From: a virus
DNA length: 28,370 nt
IMG/VR virus record: IMGVR_UViG_3300010883_000303
Span: 1 to 28,370 of that record
Reading direction: 5' to 3' (one strand)
The notes under the pieces are model-generated. The model ran no database searches. It saw only the letters and a program-made list of their open reading frames with translations, and was not told the origin of the DNA. Shown piece after piece: positions 2 to 6,924 of this stretch. The position numbers and the translations under genes were made by a program. The first letter of the stretch is position 1. Every line of letters starts with the position of its first letter.

Positions 2-553
2 AATAAGTGTTTGATTGCGTATGATTACGTCAAACTCACTGGGGAAAAAGTAGGTCAAAACTGGGCCGAGCACCAAGCTATAGGAGAAAAAATTCAGCGA
101 CTCAAAGAAATTGCCGTAGAAGTTAACGCCCCCTTGTTAACCGCAATGCAGCTCAACAGAACGGGAGAAAACAGAAACAGGCAGGGGTCGGCCCTAGTAG
201 ATGACAGCTCCGCTATCTCCCTGTCCGACAGGCTGCAATGGTACGCTGCGTTTACCGCTATATTCAGGCGCAAAACCTTAGACGAAATCGCTCTCGACGG
301 AGAAGACTTCGGCACACACAAGCTAATCCCGCTCAAGACCCGCTTCCAAGGTAAGGACGCCATGGGCCACCAAGACTTCCTTAGCAGAAGATTTCCAGAC
401 GGCTCTGAAAGATACGTGATGAATCATCTTAATTTTTCTATTGGTAATTTCAACATAGAAGAGCGGGGCTCGCTAAGAGATATCTGCGAGAGAGCCAGAG
501 AATCTTACGAGCTGAACGATAGGGGGAGAAACGACGGGAACTCACTCTTATGA
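2..553 (+). CDS. dnaB: Replicative DNA helicase, DnaB family (5' partial)
   Basis: This is the C-terminal part of an SF4 (RecA-fold) hexameric helicase, which would unwind DNA at the phage fork. The frame is open to the left edge, so the TTG at 11 is not the true start and the N-terminal domain and Walker A lie outside the window. A Walker B strand (LIAYDY) appears at once. About 40 residues later comes the family motif after the conserved 'A..vNAPLLTAMQLNR' stretch, with QLNR as the sensor-like H3 motif. Next are DDSSAISLSDRLQW, matching the DnaB segment before the last core strands, and a basic KTRFQGKD loop comparable to the KnRnG element. It overlaps the primase by ATGA, so the two are translated together, as expected of a helicase-primase pair. 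The family call is firm from motifs; T7-type fusion is excluded because the primase is a separate gene downstream. Confidence 0.88.
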   Translation, partial: NKCLIAYDYVKLTGEKVGQNWAEHQAIGEKIQRLKEIAVEVNAPLLTAMQLNRTGENRNRQGSALVDDSSAISLSDRLQWYAAFTAIFRRKTLDEIALDGEDFGTHKLIPLKTRFQGKDAMGHQDFLSRRFPDGSERYVMNHLNFSIGNFNIEERGSLRDICERARESYELNDRGRNDGNSLL

Positions 554-1485
554 GCAGAAACTATAAAGATATGCTTTATGAGCTTGGCTATTCCAACATA
601 ATGGAAAATGCCAAAGAATACAGGACTAGACCTATCTACAGGGAGTCCGACAACAACACCGTCTTGCGGATAAGCAAACAGAACGGCTACTTTGTGGACT
701 TTGCCAAAAACATAAGCGGGTCATTCGAGGACTTGGTTAAGCTCTCCCTAGACCTGAAATCAATAGAAGACGTTAAGGGTTGGGTGAGCAAGCATGGTGG
801 GGTAAGCTCCACCTCGGAAGAAGCGAAGCCTACAATTAGGGCACAAAAAACATTCCCCAAAGCGGTCTTGGCCAAGCTCTTTCCCGATCACAGTTATTGG
901 GTCGCGAGGGGTGTCTCAGAGTATACAGTCTCTCGGTTTCGCGGGGGAATAGTAAGAGAGGGCAAGATGGCGAACAGATATGTTTTCCCAATTTTCGATG
1001 CCAAAGAAAATTTAGTTGGAGTTGCTGGCAGAGATTTAATTTCTAGTGATCGTAGACCAAAATGGAAGCTCATTGGAGATAAGTCTCAGTGGAAATACCC
1101 CGCGTTTTTAAATCATAGAGAGCTAAAGGAATCAAAATCAGTAATAATAGTAGAAAGCATAGGAGACATGCTTGCTCTCTGGGATTGCGAAATCAAAAAC
1201 GTATGCGTGACGTTCGGCTTAGACATTGGCCCAGCTCTATTAAATCTTTTCTTGCGGTACGACATGGAAAGGGTTATTGTTTCATTTAACGACGACTCCG
1301 AAAACAATGAAGCTGGAAACTTGGCCGCAAATAAGGCTGAAAAGAAGCTCCTTCGGTATTTCGACCGAAGCCAAATTAGCGTAGCCCTTCCTACTCGAAA
1401 CGATTTCGGGGAGATGTCTAAAGACGAAATAATTAAATGGGTAAAACAACACAATATCTATCAGCCTCAAGAATCAAGACGCTAG
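550..1485 (+). CDS. DNA primase, DnaG/Toprim type, cysteine-free N-terminal domain
   Basis: This primase would make RNA primers for lagging-strand synthesis. Residues about 115-162 match the DnaG RNA-polymerase basic region: YWVARGVSEYTVSRF, then RYVFPIFDAKENLVGVAGRD. The Toprim domain follows, with catalytic Glu202 in IIVESIGDMLAL and an acidic metal site at Asp248-Asp249 in VIVSFNDD, then EAGNLAANKA. The N-terminal 70 residues have the layout of a CHC2 zinc-binding domain (PIYRES...NTVLRISKQNGYFVDF...GSFEDLV), but none of the expected Cys/His ligands is present. The 311-residue length is short because the DnaB-binding C-terminal domain of DnaG is absent. The ATG lies inside the helicase stop (ATGA). 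The gene's end is overlapped for 49 bases by the nuclease gene in another frame. Toprim assignment is strong; a zinc-free primer-site recognition mode is inference. Confidence 0.88.
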   Translation: MSRNYKDMLYELGYSNIMENAKEYRTRPIYRESDNNTVLRISKQNGYFVDFAKNISGSFEDLVKLSLDLKSIEDVKGWVSKHGGVSSTSEEAKPTIRAQKTFPKAVLAKLFPDHSYWVARGVSEYTVSRFRGGIVREGKMANRYVFPIFDAKENLVGVAGRDLISSDRRPKWKLIGDKSQWKYPAFLNHRELKESKSVIIVESIGDMLALWDCEIKNVCVTFGLDIGPALLNLFLRYDMERVIVSFNDDSENNEAGNLAANKAEKKLLRYFDRSQISVALPTRNDFGEMSKDEIIKWVKQHNIYQPQESRR

Positions 1486-2411
1486 AGAATTGCTCTTGGT
1501 TGTATTGGGGAAAATATCACCTCAAATTGCCCGACACGACAAATGACGGCGCGATTCGGGGATCGATTTGCCACCTCATCTTTGAGTGCCTCCTGAACAA
1601 GCGACACAAAAAGCATTTTACCGCTATCACCAAGGCTTCCGACACAAACGCAAGCCCAGCTGTTATTAGACTCATAGTGAAGCAGCTCCACCAGTATGAG
1701 GCTTTCAACGAAGAGAATTATGACATGATTTTAGAGATGATTCTCGTGGGGTTGAATAACGACTTCTACTGCAAGGGCAAGGCTCTAGGCGAAGCCGAGA
1801 AGAGGTTCGATCTTACAAACGAAGACCCGCCCTATCGAATAATGGGCTTTATGGATAAGTACGCAATCGACAAGAAAAATAGTACCGTTAGTATTGTTGA
1901 TTACAAATCAAGCAAGAAAAAATTCAGAGGGGAGGAACTAGAATCCAATGCTCAAGCAATGATGTACTCCCTAGCTGCAAGAAAACTTTGGCCCAAGGTA
2001 AAACGAAGGATCGTAGACTTTCTTTTCCTGCGGTTCCCTCGCCAGCCAGTTCAAAAGCTTGAATTTTCAGACGAACAGCTCCGTGGGTTTGAGTTCTATC
2101 TCAGTCACATACACGAACAGATAAACAACTTCACAGAAGAGCTTGCTAAAACTAATTACGCCGCCGACAATCCGAAAGTCCGCTGGCTATGCGGTCCCGC
2201 TAAGAGCGGGTGGATTTGCCCACTTCATAAGCCCTTCGACTATTATGTTTTGCTTGACAAATCCTCAAGAATAGTAAAAACTAGTCATAAGAAGTCGGAA
2301 CTGACTTTAAAGAAAGAACACACAATTGAAGAAAGACACTACACAGGATGCCCAAGATTCAATGGCAGCGGGGGGTCGTGTTCTTCAATGGAAGACCCGT
2401 TTGATTTTTAA
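1437..2411 (+). CDS. PD-(D/E)XK nuclease, RecB/Cas4-like
   Basis: This looks like a single-domain DNA exonuclease of the RecB/AddB/Cas4 superfamily, likely acting in phage recombination or end processing. The N-terminus has the family signature LSASRIKTLENCSWLYW with Cys19, then GxxxH (His46) and Glu50. The core shows IMGFMD (Asp140), IVDYKSSK (Asp155-x-Lys157) and a Gln-Tyr helix (AQAMMY, Gln173), the expected motif II-III-IV order. Cys252, Cys261, Cys305 and Cys315 near the C-terminus, with Cys19, could bind an iron-sulfur cluster, but the spacing is not the classical Cas4 one. No in-frame ATG/GTG/TTG lies between 1437 and the conserved LSASRI motif, so the 49-base overlap with the primase is needed. 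The downstream gene starts directly at its stop (TAAATG). There is no CRISPR array or cas1/cas2 nearby, so a spacer-acquisition role is unlikely. Confidence 0.82.
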   Translation: MGKTTQYLSASRIKTLENCSWLYWGKYHLKLPDTTNDGAIRGSICHLIFECLLNKRHKKHFTAITKASDTNASPAVIRLIVKQLHQYEAFNEENYDMILEMILVGLNNDFYCKGKALGEAEKRFDLTNEDPPYRIMGFMDKYAIDKKNSTVSIVDYKSSKKKFRGEELESNAQAMMYSLAARKLWPKVKRRIVDFLFLRFPRQPVQKLEFSDEQLRGFEFYLSHIHEQINNFTEELAKTNYAADNPKVRWLCGPAKSGWICPLHKPFDYYVLLDKSSRIVKTSHKKSELTLKKEHTIEERHYTGCPRFNGSGGSCSSMEDPFDF

Positions 2412-3155
2412 ATGATACCTTTTTTTAAATCTCATTACTCGATTGGAAAATCCATCCTTACCTTACAGGAAAAAGGTACGGCCATCGAAGGCGGGCCGCA
2501 GTCCATCATAGACCTATGCCTTAAAAACGAAATCAAGTCCCTTCACCTTGTCGAAGATTCTATGAGCGGCTTTCTGGAGGGGTATATCAACGCTAAGTCT
2601 GCGAAGCTTGACTTTAGATTTGGGTTGAGACTAAACGTGTGCAACGATATGTTTGAAAAGAACGAGGCCTCTCTTGGTAAGACCTCAAAAGTGGTGATAT
2701 TTGCGAACAATAAGGCTGGATACAAAAGATTAATAAAAATTTTCACCTCAGCCGCGCAAAAGGGATTCTACTACACTCCAAGAACAGACTATAAAACCCT
2801 AGCGTCATTTTGGGACAAAAGAGACCTGACCCTAATGGTTCCATTTTATGATTCGTTTTTATATAAAAATGCCCTGTGCGGTTCCGTTTGTGTGCCTGAT
2901 TTTAAATTTGCTGATCCTGTTTTCGCCGAAGAAGAAAACGATATACCGTTTAACTACCTTATTCAAAAACACCTAGACAGATTTGTTGGCGACAAGTATG
3001 AAAAGGTTAAGGCCAAGAGCGTGTTCTATTCGCGCAAAGAAGACTTCAAGGCGTACCTGACGTTCCGTTGCATAAACAATCGTTCAACCTTGGAAAGGCC
3101 GAACTTAGACCATATGACAAGCAATGAGTTTTGCTTAGAGAGCTGGCAGGGATAG
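2412..3155 (+). CDS. Detached PHP domain of DNA polymerase III alpha (degenerate)
   Basis: This 247-residue protein corresponds to the N-terminal PHP domain of DnaE/PolC, here encoded apart from the polymerase core. It starts SHYSIGKSILTLQE, comparable to the 'HxHSxYSlLDG' opening of DnaE. IIDLCLKNEIKSLHLVEDSMSGF matches the 'A...G..alalTDHgnmfG' segment, and KLDFRFGLRLNV matches the 'ikpIiGvE' strand. The metal-site residues are largely lost: only one His (His8) remains of the HxH pair, Asp49 is followed by Ser instead of His, and the 'G.E' Glu is replaced. It is therefore probably a structural partner, not a nuclease. The C-terminus resembles the region before the LPxF motif, and that motif appears at the start of the polymerase gene. 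The ATG abuts the nuclease stop and no clear Shine-Dalgarno is seen, suggesting coupled translation. Confidence 0.68.
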   Translation: MIPFFKSHYSIGKSILTLQEKGTAIEGGPQSIIDLCLKNEIKSLHLVEDSMSGFLEGYINAKSAKLDFRFGLRLNVCNDMFEKNEASLGKTSKVVIFANNKAGYKRLIKIFTSAAQKGFYYTPRTDYKTLASFWDKRDLTLMVPFYDSFLYKNALCGSVCVPDFKFADPVFAEEENDIPFNYLIQKHLDRFVGDKYEKVKAKSVFYSRKEDFKAYLTFRCINNRSTLERPNLDHMTSNEFCLESWQG

Positions 3156-3161
3156 AGAGAT

Positions 3162-3800
3162 ATGGACGAGCATCTACTAAGATTCGACAAAGGGAAAACG
3201 TATGTCTTTATTGACTGTGAAACTTTAAATTTATGCCTTAACTCATGTCACAACCTGCCTTGGCAGATAGCAATGGTGAAGATTAAGGGCGACCAGATAA
3301 TCGCCGATAAAGATATTTACATAAAATGGGACACGGAACTAAAAATTAGCGCCGATGCTGCTCGTATCACGCGGTACAGTCAAAAAACGGTAGACAGACT
3401 TGGTATATCCCCAGAGGAGGCTTTCCCCACGATAGAAGATTGGCTGGACGACGCCGACCTCATTGCTGGCCACAACATTCTTGGCTTCGATATTTACTTA
3501 ATTAAGGATTATTACAAATTCATGGGTAAATCTGCGGAGCATCTTTACCCCAAGATCATCGACACCAACTCCATAGCGAGGGGAATTAAAATGGGATTGC
3601 CATACAAGCAAGGGGACTCCCTTGCGGAATATCAATACATCGCCTCGAACAAAAAGCAACGAGGAATCAAGACGAGCATGGGGGCTCTCGGAAAAGAGTT
3701 TGATATTGATCATGACTATAGCCGACTCCACGACGCTCTAGTAGACCTAGGATTGAACATCAAAGTCTGGAACAAGCTCAAGTGGCAAATTGACTTATGA
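3162..3800 (+). CDS. DnaQ-like DEDDh 3'-5' exonuclease (proofreading subunit)
   Basis: This is a stand-alone RNase H-fold 3'-5' exonuclease, most likely the proofreading subunit for the adjacent polymerase. All active-site motifs are visible: ExoI VFIDCET (Asp18, Glu20), ExoII GHNILGFDIYLI (Asp110) and ExoIII HDALVD (His190, Asp195), which places it in the DEDDh class of DnaQ and the PolC insert. At 212 residues it is about the size of the DnaQ catalytic domain without a long C-terminal tail. The gene lies 6 bases after the PHP gene and overlaps the polymerase start by ATGA. The start at 3162 follows a purine-rich GGGATAGAGAG stretch. Position between PHP and polymerase is the same as that of the exonuclease inside the PolC polypeptide. 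Enzyme class is very secure; partner identity is inferred from context. Confidence 0.9.
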   Translation: MDEHLLRFDKGKTYVFIDCETLNLCLNSCHNLPWQIAMVKIKGDQIIADKDIYIKWDTELKISADAARITRYSQKTVDRLGISPEEAFPTIEDWLDDADLIAGHNILGFDIYLIKDYYKFMGKSAEHLYPKIIDTNSIARGIKMGLPYKQGDSLAEYQYIASNKKQRGIKTSMGALGKEFDIDHDYSRLHDALVDLGLNIKVWNKLKWQIDL

Positions 3801-6349
3801 AATTCGAGAAAAAATTTAAAAATTACGATCTCGAAATCCACGGAGTAAGGCTTCCTCGGTTTGAGATAGACAAGTCCCACAAGCACAAGCTTAAAGTAAG
3901 CGAGGATTGTGACAATTATGATTTCTTACGCAAGCTGAGCCTAAACGGCTTTGACGAGCTTAACTTAGAAAAGGATTCGGAACTCTATAAGAAATACGTA
4001 GATCGCGCCAAATACGAACTAGCGACCCTAAAGGACCTCGGGTTTATCGATTATGTACTTTTGGTATGGGACGTTATAAACTTCTGCAAAGAGAGCGATA
4101 TTCCCACGGGCATGGGGAGAGGTTCTGCCGCTGGCAGTTTGGTTCTGTTTCTGATAGGCGTTACGGGTGTTGACCCAATAGAGCACGATCTCTATTTCGA
4201 AAGGTTTGTCTCTAAAACCAGAGCCAAGAAAAAGATAGTAGATGGAGTTACGTATCTTGACGGAGCCTTAATGTGCGACGTCGATTTAGACCTCTGTTAC
4301 TACAGGAGGCAAGAGGTTATCCAGTATCTGGAAAGTAAGTTCTCAGGAAAAACAGCCAAGATAGTTACCATGAACACCCTCAGCGGTAAACTGCTGATGA
4401 AGGAGTGCGGTAAAATTGTGGCTGGGAAAAATGAAACCGAAATGAACATGGTTTCAGCGATGATACCCAAGCTTTTCGGTCAAGTCAAAGACATCAAAGA
4501 GACATACGAAGAAGAAGATAAGTTTAGAGAATGGTGCGACGAAAATAAAGAAGCGTACGAGATAGCCACAAAACTCAGAGGGTTGACAAAGAACAAGGGG
4601 GTTCATCCCTCCGCCATATCCCTGTCTTACGAGCCGATGGAGGACTCTTGCCCAGCCGAGCTTTCATCTGGAAAGGATTCTTCCGTGTGCTCGTACGATA
4701 TGAATTGGATTTCTATTTTCAACGTTAAGCTCGACCTGCTCGGCTTAAGGAGCGTCTCCGTCGTGGATGATGTATGCAAACGGGTGGGGATCAAGATGAC
4801 CGACATAGACCTTAACGACGATCTCATTTATCAACAGCTGCAAGACCTCAGGACTCCGCACGGATGCTTTCAGATCGAAGCGGAAACCAACTATAGAATT
4901 TGCCAGAAAGTAAAGCCCAAAAACCTTGACGAACTAAGCGCTGTTCTTGCACTCGCTAGGCCGGGGGCCATGCAGTTCGCTGATCAATACGCTAACTACA
5001 CAAACAATGATGTCAACGAATCCATTCACCCATTCTTTGATGATATTTTGGCATCGACAGGAGGCGTTTGTCTTTATCAAGAGCAGATGATGAAGATGGC
5101 GCACAAGGTGGGCTTTACGCTTGATGAGGCAGAAACCCTCCGTCGTATCGTCGGCAAAAAGAAAAGAACCGAAGTGAGGAAGTGGAAGAAAAAGATTATT
5201 GATAAGATTAAAGAAAATAATCTTGACCCCGACATCAGCGAAATCCTTTGGCAAATCCTCGAGGATTCAGCCAACTACTCATTCAACAAGAGCCATAGCG
5301 TGAGTTACGCTGCCCTCGCCGCTGCAACAGTTTATCTCAAGTTCACGCATCCCCAGCAGTTTTTCCTTTCCCTCTTGAAGATGACTCGCCACGAACCAGA
5401 CCCAATAAATGAAATCTCTAGAATCCACACAGAAATGAGTGAGTTCGATATCAAACTGCTCCCCCCACACCTTACCAGATCGGAGATGGACTTCAGCATC
5501 GAGGGTAAAGATATTAGGTTTGGATTGCTTTCTATAAAGGGAATCTCCGAAAAGTCCATTGAAAAAATAAACAACTTCAAGAGTGTCTACTCTAACAAAT
5601 TCGAAATCTTCTCCGCAGCCAGAGAGGCTAAGCTAAATATCGGCGTGCTGTCTGCCCTGATTCAAGCTGGAGCCTTGGAGGGGTTTAAGCAATCTCGAAG
5701 TAAGGTCGTGCTCGAGGCACAACTATGGAATCTCCTAACAGACAGGGAAAGAAGATATGCGATGTCTCTCGCGGATCAGATGGAGTTCGACTTGGTAGAA
5801 ACGATCAAATTCCTAATGGACTTTAAGGATGAGAAAGGCAAGGCGATTGTTAAGGGCTCTAGGTATGAGACGATCAAGAAAAAATATCAACCATATTTAG
5901 ACATTTTTTTACTAAACAGCAAGTCTGAGAGCTTCGCGAACTGGTACTACGAAAAGATGCTCCTCGGATACACTTACAATAAAACCCTCCAAGATATCTT
6001 CTCCGACAAAAGACCAGGCCTTGCTCCCATACGTAGCGTTAATGGCCTCCCAGCGCGTGCTAGAGCCATCTTTATTGGCAGGGTGGAGGATACCCACAAG
6101 GGAAAGTCTAAGAACGGAAATAAGTACTTCAAAGCTGTCATTTCTGACGAAACAGGACTTATTCCTGCCCTCATTTTTAGGGACCAAATGGACAAATGCG
6201 AGTCGGCAAACAGCGGTTTCCCCAAGAAAAATAATATTGTCATCGTAAAAGGCACGAAAGCCGACGGAGCTGTCTTTGCGGACGTAATTAGCGTTCAAGA
6301 CACCCAAGTATATACTAAACTTTCCGAGCTCAAGGCAATAAAGAGTTGA
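3797..6349 (+). CDS. dnaE: DNA polymerase III alpha subunit core, PHP-less (C family)
   Basis: This is the replicative C-family polymerase of the phage. It lacks a PHP domain and begins near the 'LPxF' motif (RLPRFEID, residues 19-26) that follows PHP in DnaE. The palm has GMGRGSAAGSLV (105-116), the catalytic pair in CDVDLDLCYYRR (Asp161, Asp163) and the third Asp313 in KLDLLGLRSVS. Further motifs are NKGVHPSA, GCFQIEAE, LALARPGAM, CLYQEQMMKMA, LRRIVGKKK and YSFNKSHSVSYA, all in DnaE order. A C-terminal OB-fold (about 750-830; AIFIGRVEDTHKGKSKNGNKYF...ISDETG) should contact ssDNA. The 850 residues are close to DnaE minus its PHP domain. The upstream genes supply the PHP domain and exonuclease. 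The final codons and stop overlap the -35 box of the next promoter. Catalytic residues are intact, so activity is expected. Confidence 0.95.
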   Translation: MKFEKKFKNYDLEIHGVRLPRFEIDKSHKHKLKVSEDCDNYDFLRKLSLNGFDELNLEKDSELYKKYVDRAKYELATLKDLGFIDYVLLVWDVINFCKESDIPTGMGRGSAAGSLVLFLIGVTGVDPIEHDLYFERFVSKTRAKKKIVDGVTYLDGALMCDVDLDLCYYRRQEVIQYLESKFSGKTAKIVTMNTLSGKLLMKECGKIVAGKNETEMNMVSAMIPKLFGQVKDIKETYEEEDKFREWCDENKEAYEIATKLRGLTKNKGVHPSAISLSYEPMEDSCPAELSSGKDSSVCSYDMNWISIFNVKLDLLGLRSVSVVDDVCKRVGIKMTDIDLNDDLIYQQLQDLRTPHGCFQIEAETNYRICQKVKPKNLDELSAVLALARPGAMQFADQYANYTNNDVNESIHPFFDDILASTGGVCLYQEQMMKMAHKVGFTLDEAETLRRIVGKKKRTEVRKWKKKIIDKIKENNLDPDISEILWQILEDSANYSFNKSHSVSYAALAAATVYLKFTHPQQFFLSLLKMTRHEPDPINEISRIHTEMSEFDIKLLPPHLTRSEMDFSIEGKDIRFGLLSIKGISEKSIEKINNFKSVYSNKFEIFSAAREAKLNIGVLSALIQAGALEGFKQSRSKVVLEAQLWNLLTDRERRYAMSLADQMEFDLVETIKFLMDFKDEKGKAIVKGSRYETIKKKYQPYLDIFLLNSKSESFANWYYEKMLLGYTYNKTLQDIFSDKRPGLAPIRSVNGLPARARAIFIGRVEDTHKGKSKNGNKYFKAVISDETGLIPALIFRDQMDKCESANSGFPKKNNIVIVKGTKADGAVFADVISVQDTQVYTKLSELKAIKS

Positions 6350-6381: not shown

Positions 6382-6924
6382 ATGATACACTTCTACAAAC
6401 CAAATGCCCGAAACGCTGGCGCGGCTTGCAGCTTCTACCTAAACAAGTCTGACGAATCATTTTTTGCGACCATCCTAAAACAGGCCACTTGGGACGACAA
6501 GAAAAGAAGGGCGACTTTCGACAAAAAAAGCCAAATCGTAGTCAAGCTTAGTAAGCAGGAGGTTGCGGACTTCATCCACGCCATCGAGAGCAAAGCTTCC
6601 CTTAGCGCCTACCATCAAAGCAGAGACAATATCACAAAGTTCAACTTTACATTTTCAGAGAAGAATGATAAAAGTGGATTTTATTTTTCAGTCACACAAG
6701 AACCCAAAGACGACTCCACACAAAAAGCGTCAATCTCTGTACCGCTGTATACAAACGAAGCTTGCTTGCTGCGTAAGCACTTAGAGTTTCTCCTTGACCA
6801 GTTCTTCGAGCTTGATGACGCCAAGTATGAAGTTAAGCAGCAGGAATACAAAGCCCAACAAGCCGATCAAAGTCACGCCCCGCCCCAAGCAGTTGAGGGA
6901 CAAGCGGAAGAAGACCCGTGGTAA
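6382..6924 (+). CDS. Probable single-stranded DNA-binding protein with acidic tail
   Basis: No family match is certain. The 180-residue protein opens with alternating strands (MIHFYKPNARNAGAACSFYL; FFATILKQATWD), has basic patches (DDKKRRATFDKKS) and then a long tail rich in Gln, Pro and acidic residues that ends EEDPW. A compact domain plus a flexible acidic tail with a terminal aromatic residue is the hallmark of bacterial SSB (ending in IPF) and T7 gp2.5 (ending in Phe), where the tail recruits replication partners. The N-terminal domain does not read as a standard OB-fold SSB; a Whirly/PC4-like fold is possible but unproven. Its place directly after the polymerase, with its own strong promoter, suits an abundant ssDNA-binding protein. 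The start is fixed by the promoter 7 bases upstream and no Shine-Dalgarno is present. The next gene follows at TAAATG. Confidence 0.5.
   Translation: MIHFYKPNARNAGAACSFYLNKSDESFFATILKQATWDDKKRRATFDKKSQIVVKLSKQEVADFIHAIESKASLSAYHQSRDNITKFNFTFSEKNDKSGFYFSVTQEPKDDSTQKASISVPLYTNEACLLRKHLEFLLDQFFELDDAKYEVKQQEYKAQQADQSHAPPQAVEGQAEEDPW

What the first reader, a model, noticed from the sequence alone, without database searches (positions are those of the whole stretch)
2412..6349. DNA polymerase III alpha split into PHP, exonuclease and polymerase genes in PolC domain order
Three consecutive overlapping or nearly touching genes encode a PHP-like domain, a DEDDh exonuclease and a PHP-less C-family polymerase core. 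In PolC the exonuclease is inserted in the PHP domain ahead of the polymerase, so the gene order mirrors the PolC domain order although the core motifs read as DnaE-like. The break falls just before the LPxF motif. This could be a split PolC-like enzyme or an independent assembly of a multi-subunit phage replicase.
Basis: partly seen in the sequence, partly recalled or inferred. Interest (0 to 1): 0.75.

Follow-up and report, generated by a model that had tools for sequence, protein, structure and literature searches.

The report
Phage replicative polymerase in three genes
A large group of uncultivated phages makes a bacterial-type replicative DNA polymerase as three separate proteins (a dead PHP domain, a proofreading exonuclease and a polymerase core) where bacteria keep the PHP domain and the polymerase in one chain, which gives a natural test of what the PHP domain is for.

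Summary
Window 2412-3155 encodes a stand-alone Pol III-type PHP domain: Pfam PHP 3.6e-9, AlphaFold pLDDT 84 and pTM 0.85, and the 19 Foldseek matches below E 0.001 are all C-family polymerase PHP domains (TM up to 0.79). 3162-3800 is an intact DEDDh exonuclease. 3797-6349 is a DnaE-type core with no PHP and no tau-binding tail. Chance and assembly error are excluded: 235 loci (132 distinct exonucleases) all show PHP-exonuclease-polymerase on one strand, with no fusion, and 20 contigs (31-170 kb) carry no second C-family polymerase. The PolC reading is mostly wrong: the core is DnaE-like, the PHP is uninterrupted, and only gene order and perhaps the exonuclease recall PolC. All nine PHP metal-ligand positions are lost clade-wide while the exonuclease catalytic residues are invariant. 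Best reading: a Pol III core assembled in trans, with a dead PHP subunit docking the exonuclease on the polymerase. Assembly itself is inferred. The split has one origin in this clade; some mycobacteriophages (Papyrus, Onyinye) split PHP from polymerase separately, with active-looking PHP. No conserved clamp motif and no known clamp family was found. Several relatives split the polymerase again by a split intein. New variant of a known kind.

The parts
11..553 (+). C-terminal part of a DnaB-type replicative helicase (gene cut by the window start)
   Evidence: phrog_19 DnaB-like 3.1e-8, Pfam DnaB_C 5e-6; conserved at this place in relatives
550..1485 (+). Toprim DNA primase
   Evidence: phrog_47 DNA primase 1.5e-24, Toprim_2 1.8e-6
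1437..2411 (+). PD-(D/E)XK (RecB/Cas4-like) nuclease
   Evidence: PDDEXK_1 1.4e-16, phrog_69 exonuclease 1.8e-22
2412..3155 (+). Stand-alone, catalytically dead PHP subunit (247 aa), equivalent to residues about 1-252 of DnaE
   Evidence: Pfam PHP 3.6e-9; AlphaFold pLDDT 83.9, pTM 0.85; Foldseek hits with E<0.001 all C-family polymerases, TM 0.79 to 2hpi; no PHP metal ligand retained
3162..3800 (+). DEDDh 3'-5' exonuclease subunit (212 aa), no C-terminal tail, no clamp motif found
   Evidence: RNase_T 4.3e-15, phrog_192 DNA polymerase exonuclease subunit 2.8e-21; D18 E20 D110 H190 D195 invariant in 33 sequences; no conserved clamp motif
3797..6349 (+). PHP-less DnaE-type polymerase core (850 aa): palm, fingers, thumb, HhH, OB; lacks tau-binding C-terminal domain
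   Evidence: catalytic D161, D163, D313 map to E. coli D401, D403, D555 and are invariant; model pLDDT 78, Foldseek top hits DnaE, 2.9e-35
6382..6924 (+). Whirly-like, probable single-strand DNA-binding protein with acidic tail ending in Trp
   Evidence: Pfam Whirly 7.6e-6; acidic C-terminus common, final W in 80 of 104 distinct homologues, median 33 bases after POL; function inferred

Best explanation
The three genes encode the catalytic core of a phage DNA polymerase III that assembles in trans. The PHP protein has lost nuclease chemistry and acts as a structural subunit: it packs on the palm and thumb of the PHP-less DnaE core, restoring its stability, and holds the separate DEDDh exonuclease, which supplies proofreading. 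With the phage's own DnaB helicase, Toprim primase and a Whirly-like ssDNA-binding protein in the same operon it forms a largely self-sufficient replisome. Shown here: domain identities, residue status, conserved order, and absence of a second C-family polymerase in the contigs tested. Inferred: physical assembly, the docking role of PHP, and proofreading activity.
For: PHP and POL match complementary, non-overlapping parts of DnaE. PHP, exonuclease and polymerase co-occur in order in 235 loci, 132 distinct, and no contig tested has another C-family polymerase or PHP. PHP fold confirmed with the metal ligands lost, exonuclease DEDDh invariant, polymerase aspartates invariant. In E. coli the isolated alpha fragment 1-270 is well behaved and keeps full exonuclease binding (PMC3642679). 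Loss of PHP ligands is reported to coevolve with a separate exonuclease, and PHP mutations lower Pol III stability and activity (PMC3666897). POL is one clade with 100% SH-aLRT support. Helicase and primase homologues recur next to it.
Against: No complex could be modelled, so physical assembly is not shown. The exonuclease lacks the epsilon-type tail that wraps around PHP in E. coli, so docking must differ. No conserved clamp-binding motif was found in any of the three proteins, no PF02768 or PF02916 clamp in 14 contigs (the second search had no positive control), and the tau-binding domain is missing, so processivity is unexplained.
Confidence: 0.75

Rival explanations
1. A PolC gene broken into its domains: PHP, exonuclease and polymerase are pieces of one ancestral PolC.
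For: Gene order PHP-exonuclease-polymerase matches PolC; the only clear PDB sequence relative of the exonuclease profile is a PolC-type exonuclease, 2p1j.
Against: Core is DnaE-type; PHP is uninterrupted and matches DnaE PHP better than PolC PHP (1.4e-10 against 9e-5; Foldseek TM 0.79 against 0.63); the OB domain follows the core as in DnaE instead of preceding it as in PolC.
Confidence: 0.05
2. The PHP protein no longer belongs to the polymerase: it is a vestige or a separate factor with another job, and POL works without any PHP.
For: All metal ligands lost; often separated from the polymerase by unrelated genes.
Against: Kept in every complete locus, with 30 invariant columns over 34 sequences; a vestige would decay. 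Its only close structural relatives are polymerase PHP domains.
Confidence: 0.15
3. One polyprotein made by stop-codon readthrough (PHP and exonuclease are in one frame across TAG in the window) or frameshifting, or an assembly error in one gene.
For: In the window the two frames coincide, with only TAG and two codons between them.
Against: In most relatives the genes lie hundreds of bases apart (median gap 342 bases, up to 2,300), often with whole genes in between.
Confidence: 0.02

Closest known systems
E. coli Pol III core (alpha with inactive PHP, epsilon DEDDh exonuclease, theta)
   Same: Dead PHP, separate DEDDh exonuclease, DnaE polymerase; isolated alpha 1-270 binds the exonuclease (PMC3642679)
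   Different: PHP is in the alpha chain; epsilon has a tail and a clamp motif; alpha has a clamp motif and a tau-binding C-terminal domain, all absent or not found here
Mycobacteriophages Papyrus and Onyinye DnaE (PHP gene, small gene, PHP-less polymerase gene)
   Same: PHP and polymerase in separate genes, 311 aa and 770 aa in Papyrus, similar in Onyinye, broken at the same domain boundary
   Different: PHP looks active (HxH, EH, GLE, DVHY motifs kept); no exonuclease recognised between them; unsplit relatives exist (Indlulamithi); a distant branch, joining it to this clade rejected at p-AU 0.031
Pbunavirus PB1: exonuclease gene next to DnaE
   Same: DEDDh-type exonuclease gene directly upstream of a DnaE with a degenerate PHP
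   Different: PHP fused to the polymerase, 1035 aa
PolC (Gram-positive)
   Same: Domain order PHP, exonuclease, polymerase
   Different: Single chain, exonuclease inside PHP, different polymerase subfamily
Psychrobacillus phage Perkons and Geobacillus virus E3 replication modules
   Same: Helicase, primase, nuclease, DnaE in the same order
   Different: DnaE is a single chain of about 1015 aa with its own PHP; the tree does not place it next to this clade with strong support (76)

Membership tests
C-family polymerase, DnaE type | Palm, fingers and HhH domains with three catalytic Asp | tested here: met
   PF07733, PF17657, PF14579; D161, D163, D313 invariant and aligned to D401, D403, D555
C-family polymerase, DnaE type | N-terminal PHP domain in the same chain | tested here: not met
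   POL begins just before LPxF; PHP is a separate gene in all loci of the clade. Described as strictly conserved or universal in bacterial C-family enzymes (PMC3666897, PMC12926913)
C-family polymerase, DnaE type | OB fold followed by tau-binding C-terminal domain | tested here: not met
   OB present (weak Pfam hit at 761-820; alignment to alpha about 1050); nothing follows it, so the tau-binding domain is absent. Some phage DnaE are also short
C-family polymerase, DnaE type | Internal clamp-binding motif | tested here: not met
   No conserved Qxx[LM]xF at the expected place in 26 sequences; a non-canonical motif is not excluded
PolC | PolC-type polymerase core | tested here: not met
   No PolC model listed for the core at E<=1; PolC reached only through OB
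PolC | Exonuclease inserted within PHP | tested here: not met
   PHP continuous (model); exonuclease is a separate gene
Polymerase PHP domain | PHP fold of the Pol III alpha subfamily | tested here: met
Polymerase PHP domain (active) | Ligand signature HHDHEH[C/H]DH | tested here: not met
   No ligand position retained in the split sequences aligned; pattern uniform in 34 sequences
DnaQ/epsilon proofreading exonuclease | DEDDh catalytic residues | tested here: met
   D18, E20, D110, H190, D195 invariant
DnaQ/epsilon proofreading exonuclease (E. coli type) | Clamp motif and PHP-wrapping C-terminal tail | tested here: not met
   Protein ends 17 residues after the motif III Asp; no conserved clamp motif
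Pol III core complex | Physical assembly of the subunits | not testable with these tools
   Structure prediction here takes single chains only

The most novel reading that the evidence does not exclude
A clamp- and tau-independent Pol III replicase in which a catalytically dead PHP domain is an obligate separate subunit that docks a tail-less exonuclease, giving phages a modular Pol III core that works without host replisome parts.
Probability: 0.2. Interest if true: 0.8.

Novelty: new variant of a known kind. Interest (0 to 1): 0.58.

Why it matters
The PHP domain is reported as universal in the chain of bacterial C-family polymerases even when its nuclease is dead (PMC12926913, PMC3666897), and its non-catalytic role is not fully understood. 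Here nature has cut it off, inactivated it and still kept it in more than a hundred distinct phage loci. That permits direct tests: add or omit PHP and measure stability, polymerization and exonuclease coupling. The missing clamp and tau contacts raise a second testable question about processivity.

Tried and rejected
Split PolC: rejected by profile and structure searches. Stop-codon readthrough or assembly error: rejected by the relatives. Perkons-type unsplit DnaE as the direct ancestor: synteny agrees, but the tree does not group them with strong support (76). A PHP-exonuclease fusion alignment for co-folding was misaligned by MAFFT and was not folded; the second structure job went to POL instead. 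The clamp search with PF02916 had no ringing control and counts only weakly. tblastn of the exonuclease against 50,697 phage records gave nothing at 1e-3, and the PHP's best phage hit was 3e-6 (Perkons): no isolate of this family was found in that set. Literature searches found no description of it; two likely papers on viral replicases (10.1093/nar/gkw322, 10.1093/nar/gkr564) are not held, so an earlier mention cannot be excluded.

Full report
What is there. The window is an IMG/VR virus record of 28,370 bases. Its right part carries lambda-type siphovirus tail genes (minor tail proteins, tail assembly protein, central tail fibre J). Its left part is a tight replication operon: helicase C-terminus, Toprim primase, PDDEXK nuclease, PHP, exonuclease, polymerase, Whirly-like protein.

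The PHP gene. The 247-aa product hits Pfam PHP at 3.6e-9. The model built from 34 relatives has pLDDT 83.9 and pTM 0.85. All 19 Foldseek matches below E 0.001 are C-family polymerases or an alpha-epsilon chimera, with TM 0.79 to Taq alpha; the first other PHP-type protein has TM 0.37. Aligned with active PHP domains, none of the nine ligand positions (HHDHEH[C/H]DH, signature from PMC12926913) is retained, and the pattern is uniform in 34 sequences. It is a dead PHP of DnaE type.

The exonuclease. RNase_T 4.3e-15. D18, E20, D110, H190 and D195 are invariant in 33 sequences. It ends 17 residues after motif III, so it lacks the tail and the clamp motif of E. coli epsilon. Its kinship (epsilon or PolC) is unresolved.

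The polymerase. The 850-aa product has the DnaE palm, fingers and HhH domains and a weak OB hit. D161, D163 and D313 correspond to E. coli D401, D403 and D555 and are invariant. It aligns to alpha from residue 285 to about 1050, so it has neither PHP nor tau-binding domain. The model (pLDDT 78) matches DnaE first (2.9e-35) and PolC far behind (2e-13).

Conservation. Scans of viral contigs gave 61 polymerase loci, 496 stretches related to the PHP and 272 related to the exonuclease. Among the fetched loci (several overlap, from the same contigs), 235 hold all three genes, always PHP-exonuclease-polymerase on one strand, with 132 distinct exonucleases. No fusion was seen in the clade; the fused PHP-polymerase ORFs found all belong to other phages. 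Twenty contigs of 31-170 kb have one C-family polymerase each, and 19 of them one PHP (in the twentieth, the contig of L011, no PHP was found; it begins about 4 kb upstream of the polymerase). Ten bacterial MAG contigs, several labelled Bacteroidota, also carry members; binning of phage contigs is unreliable, so hosts stay open. Between PHP and exonuclease, and between exonuclease and polymerase, diverse genes are inserted: cupin-, glycosyltransferase-, sulfotransferase- and carbamoyltransferase-like (names by eye from the sequence).

Phylogeny. In a quick tree of polymerase cores the 27 split sequences form one clade (SH-aLRT 100). Papyrus, another phage with separate PHP and polymerase genes, lies elsewhere; forcing it into the clade is rejected at p-AU 0.031, a modest value in a set with long branches. 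The sister group is unresolved. No PolC was included.

How it probably works. In E. coli the first 270 residues of alpha form a well-behaved fragment that fully binds the exonuclease (PMC3642679). PHP ligand loss is reported to accompany a separate exonuclease, and PHP mutations lower the stability and activity of Pol III (PMC3666897). The phage has this piece as its own gene. The simplest reading is that PHP rebinds the polymerase core and carries the exonuclease. Assembly and activity are inferred.

Open problems. No conserved clamp-binding motif was found in any of the three proteins, and no beta-type clamp C-terminal domain in 14 contigs (the controls rang). Processivity could come from the host clamp through an unrecognised contact, from an unknown phage factor, or from the about 80-aa protein that lies between exonuclease and polymerase in 82 of 141 distinct loci but not at that place in the window.

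Relation to known systems. It works like the E. coli core with PHP in trans. It is not PolC. Splitting of PHP from polymerase has a precedent in mycobacteriophages, where both genes are annotated as DnaE-like in Onyinye and unsplit relatives exist. What is new is the scale, the dead stand-alone PHP kept throughout, and the three-gene core with an intact exonuclease.

Noticed in passing
L044:3726-6701; L046:6001-9003; L153:7381-10339; L243:5974-8958: The polymerase of these relatives is cut again by what looks like a split intein (N part about 90-105 aa starting with Cys, C part about 37-41 aa ending in Asn, Ser+1) at FN[K/R]^SHS, 4 residues downstream of the cyanobacterial DnaE split-intein site as recalled.
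   Followed up: partly
L058:6001-8940: The same intein occurs unsplit as a mini-intein of about 127 aa in one open frame, a possible intermediate.
   Followed up: partly
L117:7358-10899: A split intein whose N-terminal ORF also carries an HNH/NUMOD-like homing endonuclease stretch (by eye).
   Followed up: partly
L008:5744-6004; L031:5751-5999; L072:7905-8147: An about 80-aa protein (MASLDFVYDLLEKL...DYLLITVQKGK) lies between exonuclease and polymerase in 82 of 141 distinct loci (142 of 142 hits in loci with both genes are in that slot); no PHROG match. Candidate accessory subunit.
   Followed up: partly
window 6382-6924: The Whirly-like protein after the polymerase ends in an acidic tail with a final Trp in most homologues, like phage SSB proteins.
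   Followed up: partly
L024:1277-2596: The PHP gene of this relative has an extra C-terminal domain of about 180 aa of unknown nature (439 aa in all; also in L052).
   Followed up: no
L289:3692-5989: Bacillus phage G DnaE is broken inside the palm by an intein/Hint domain, with a homing endonuclease gene next to it.
   Followed up: no
L290:3194-6476: Rossellomorea phage phiT1 DnaE is split into 573-aa and 469-aa genes within the polymerase core, a different break point.
   Followed up: no
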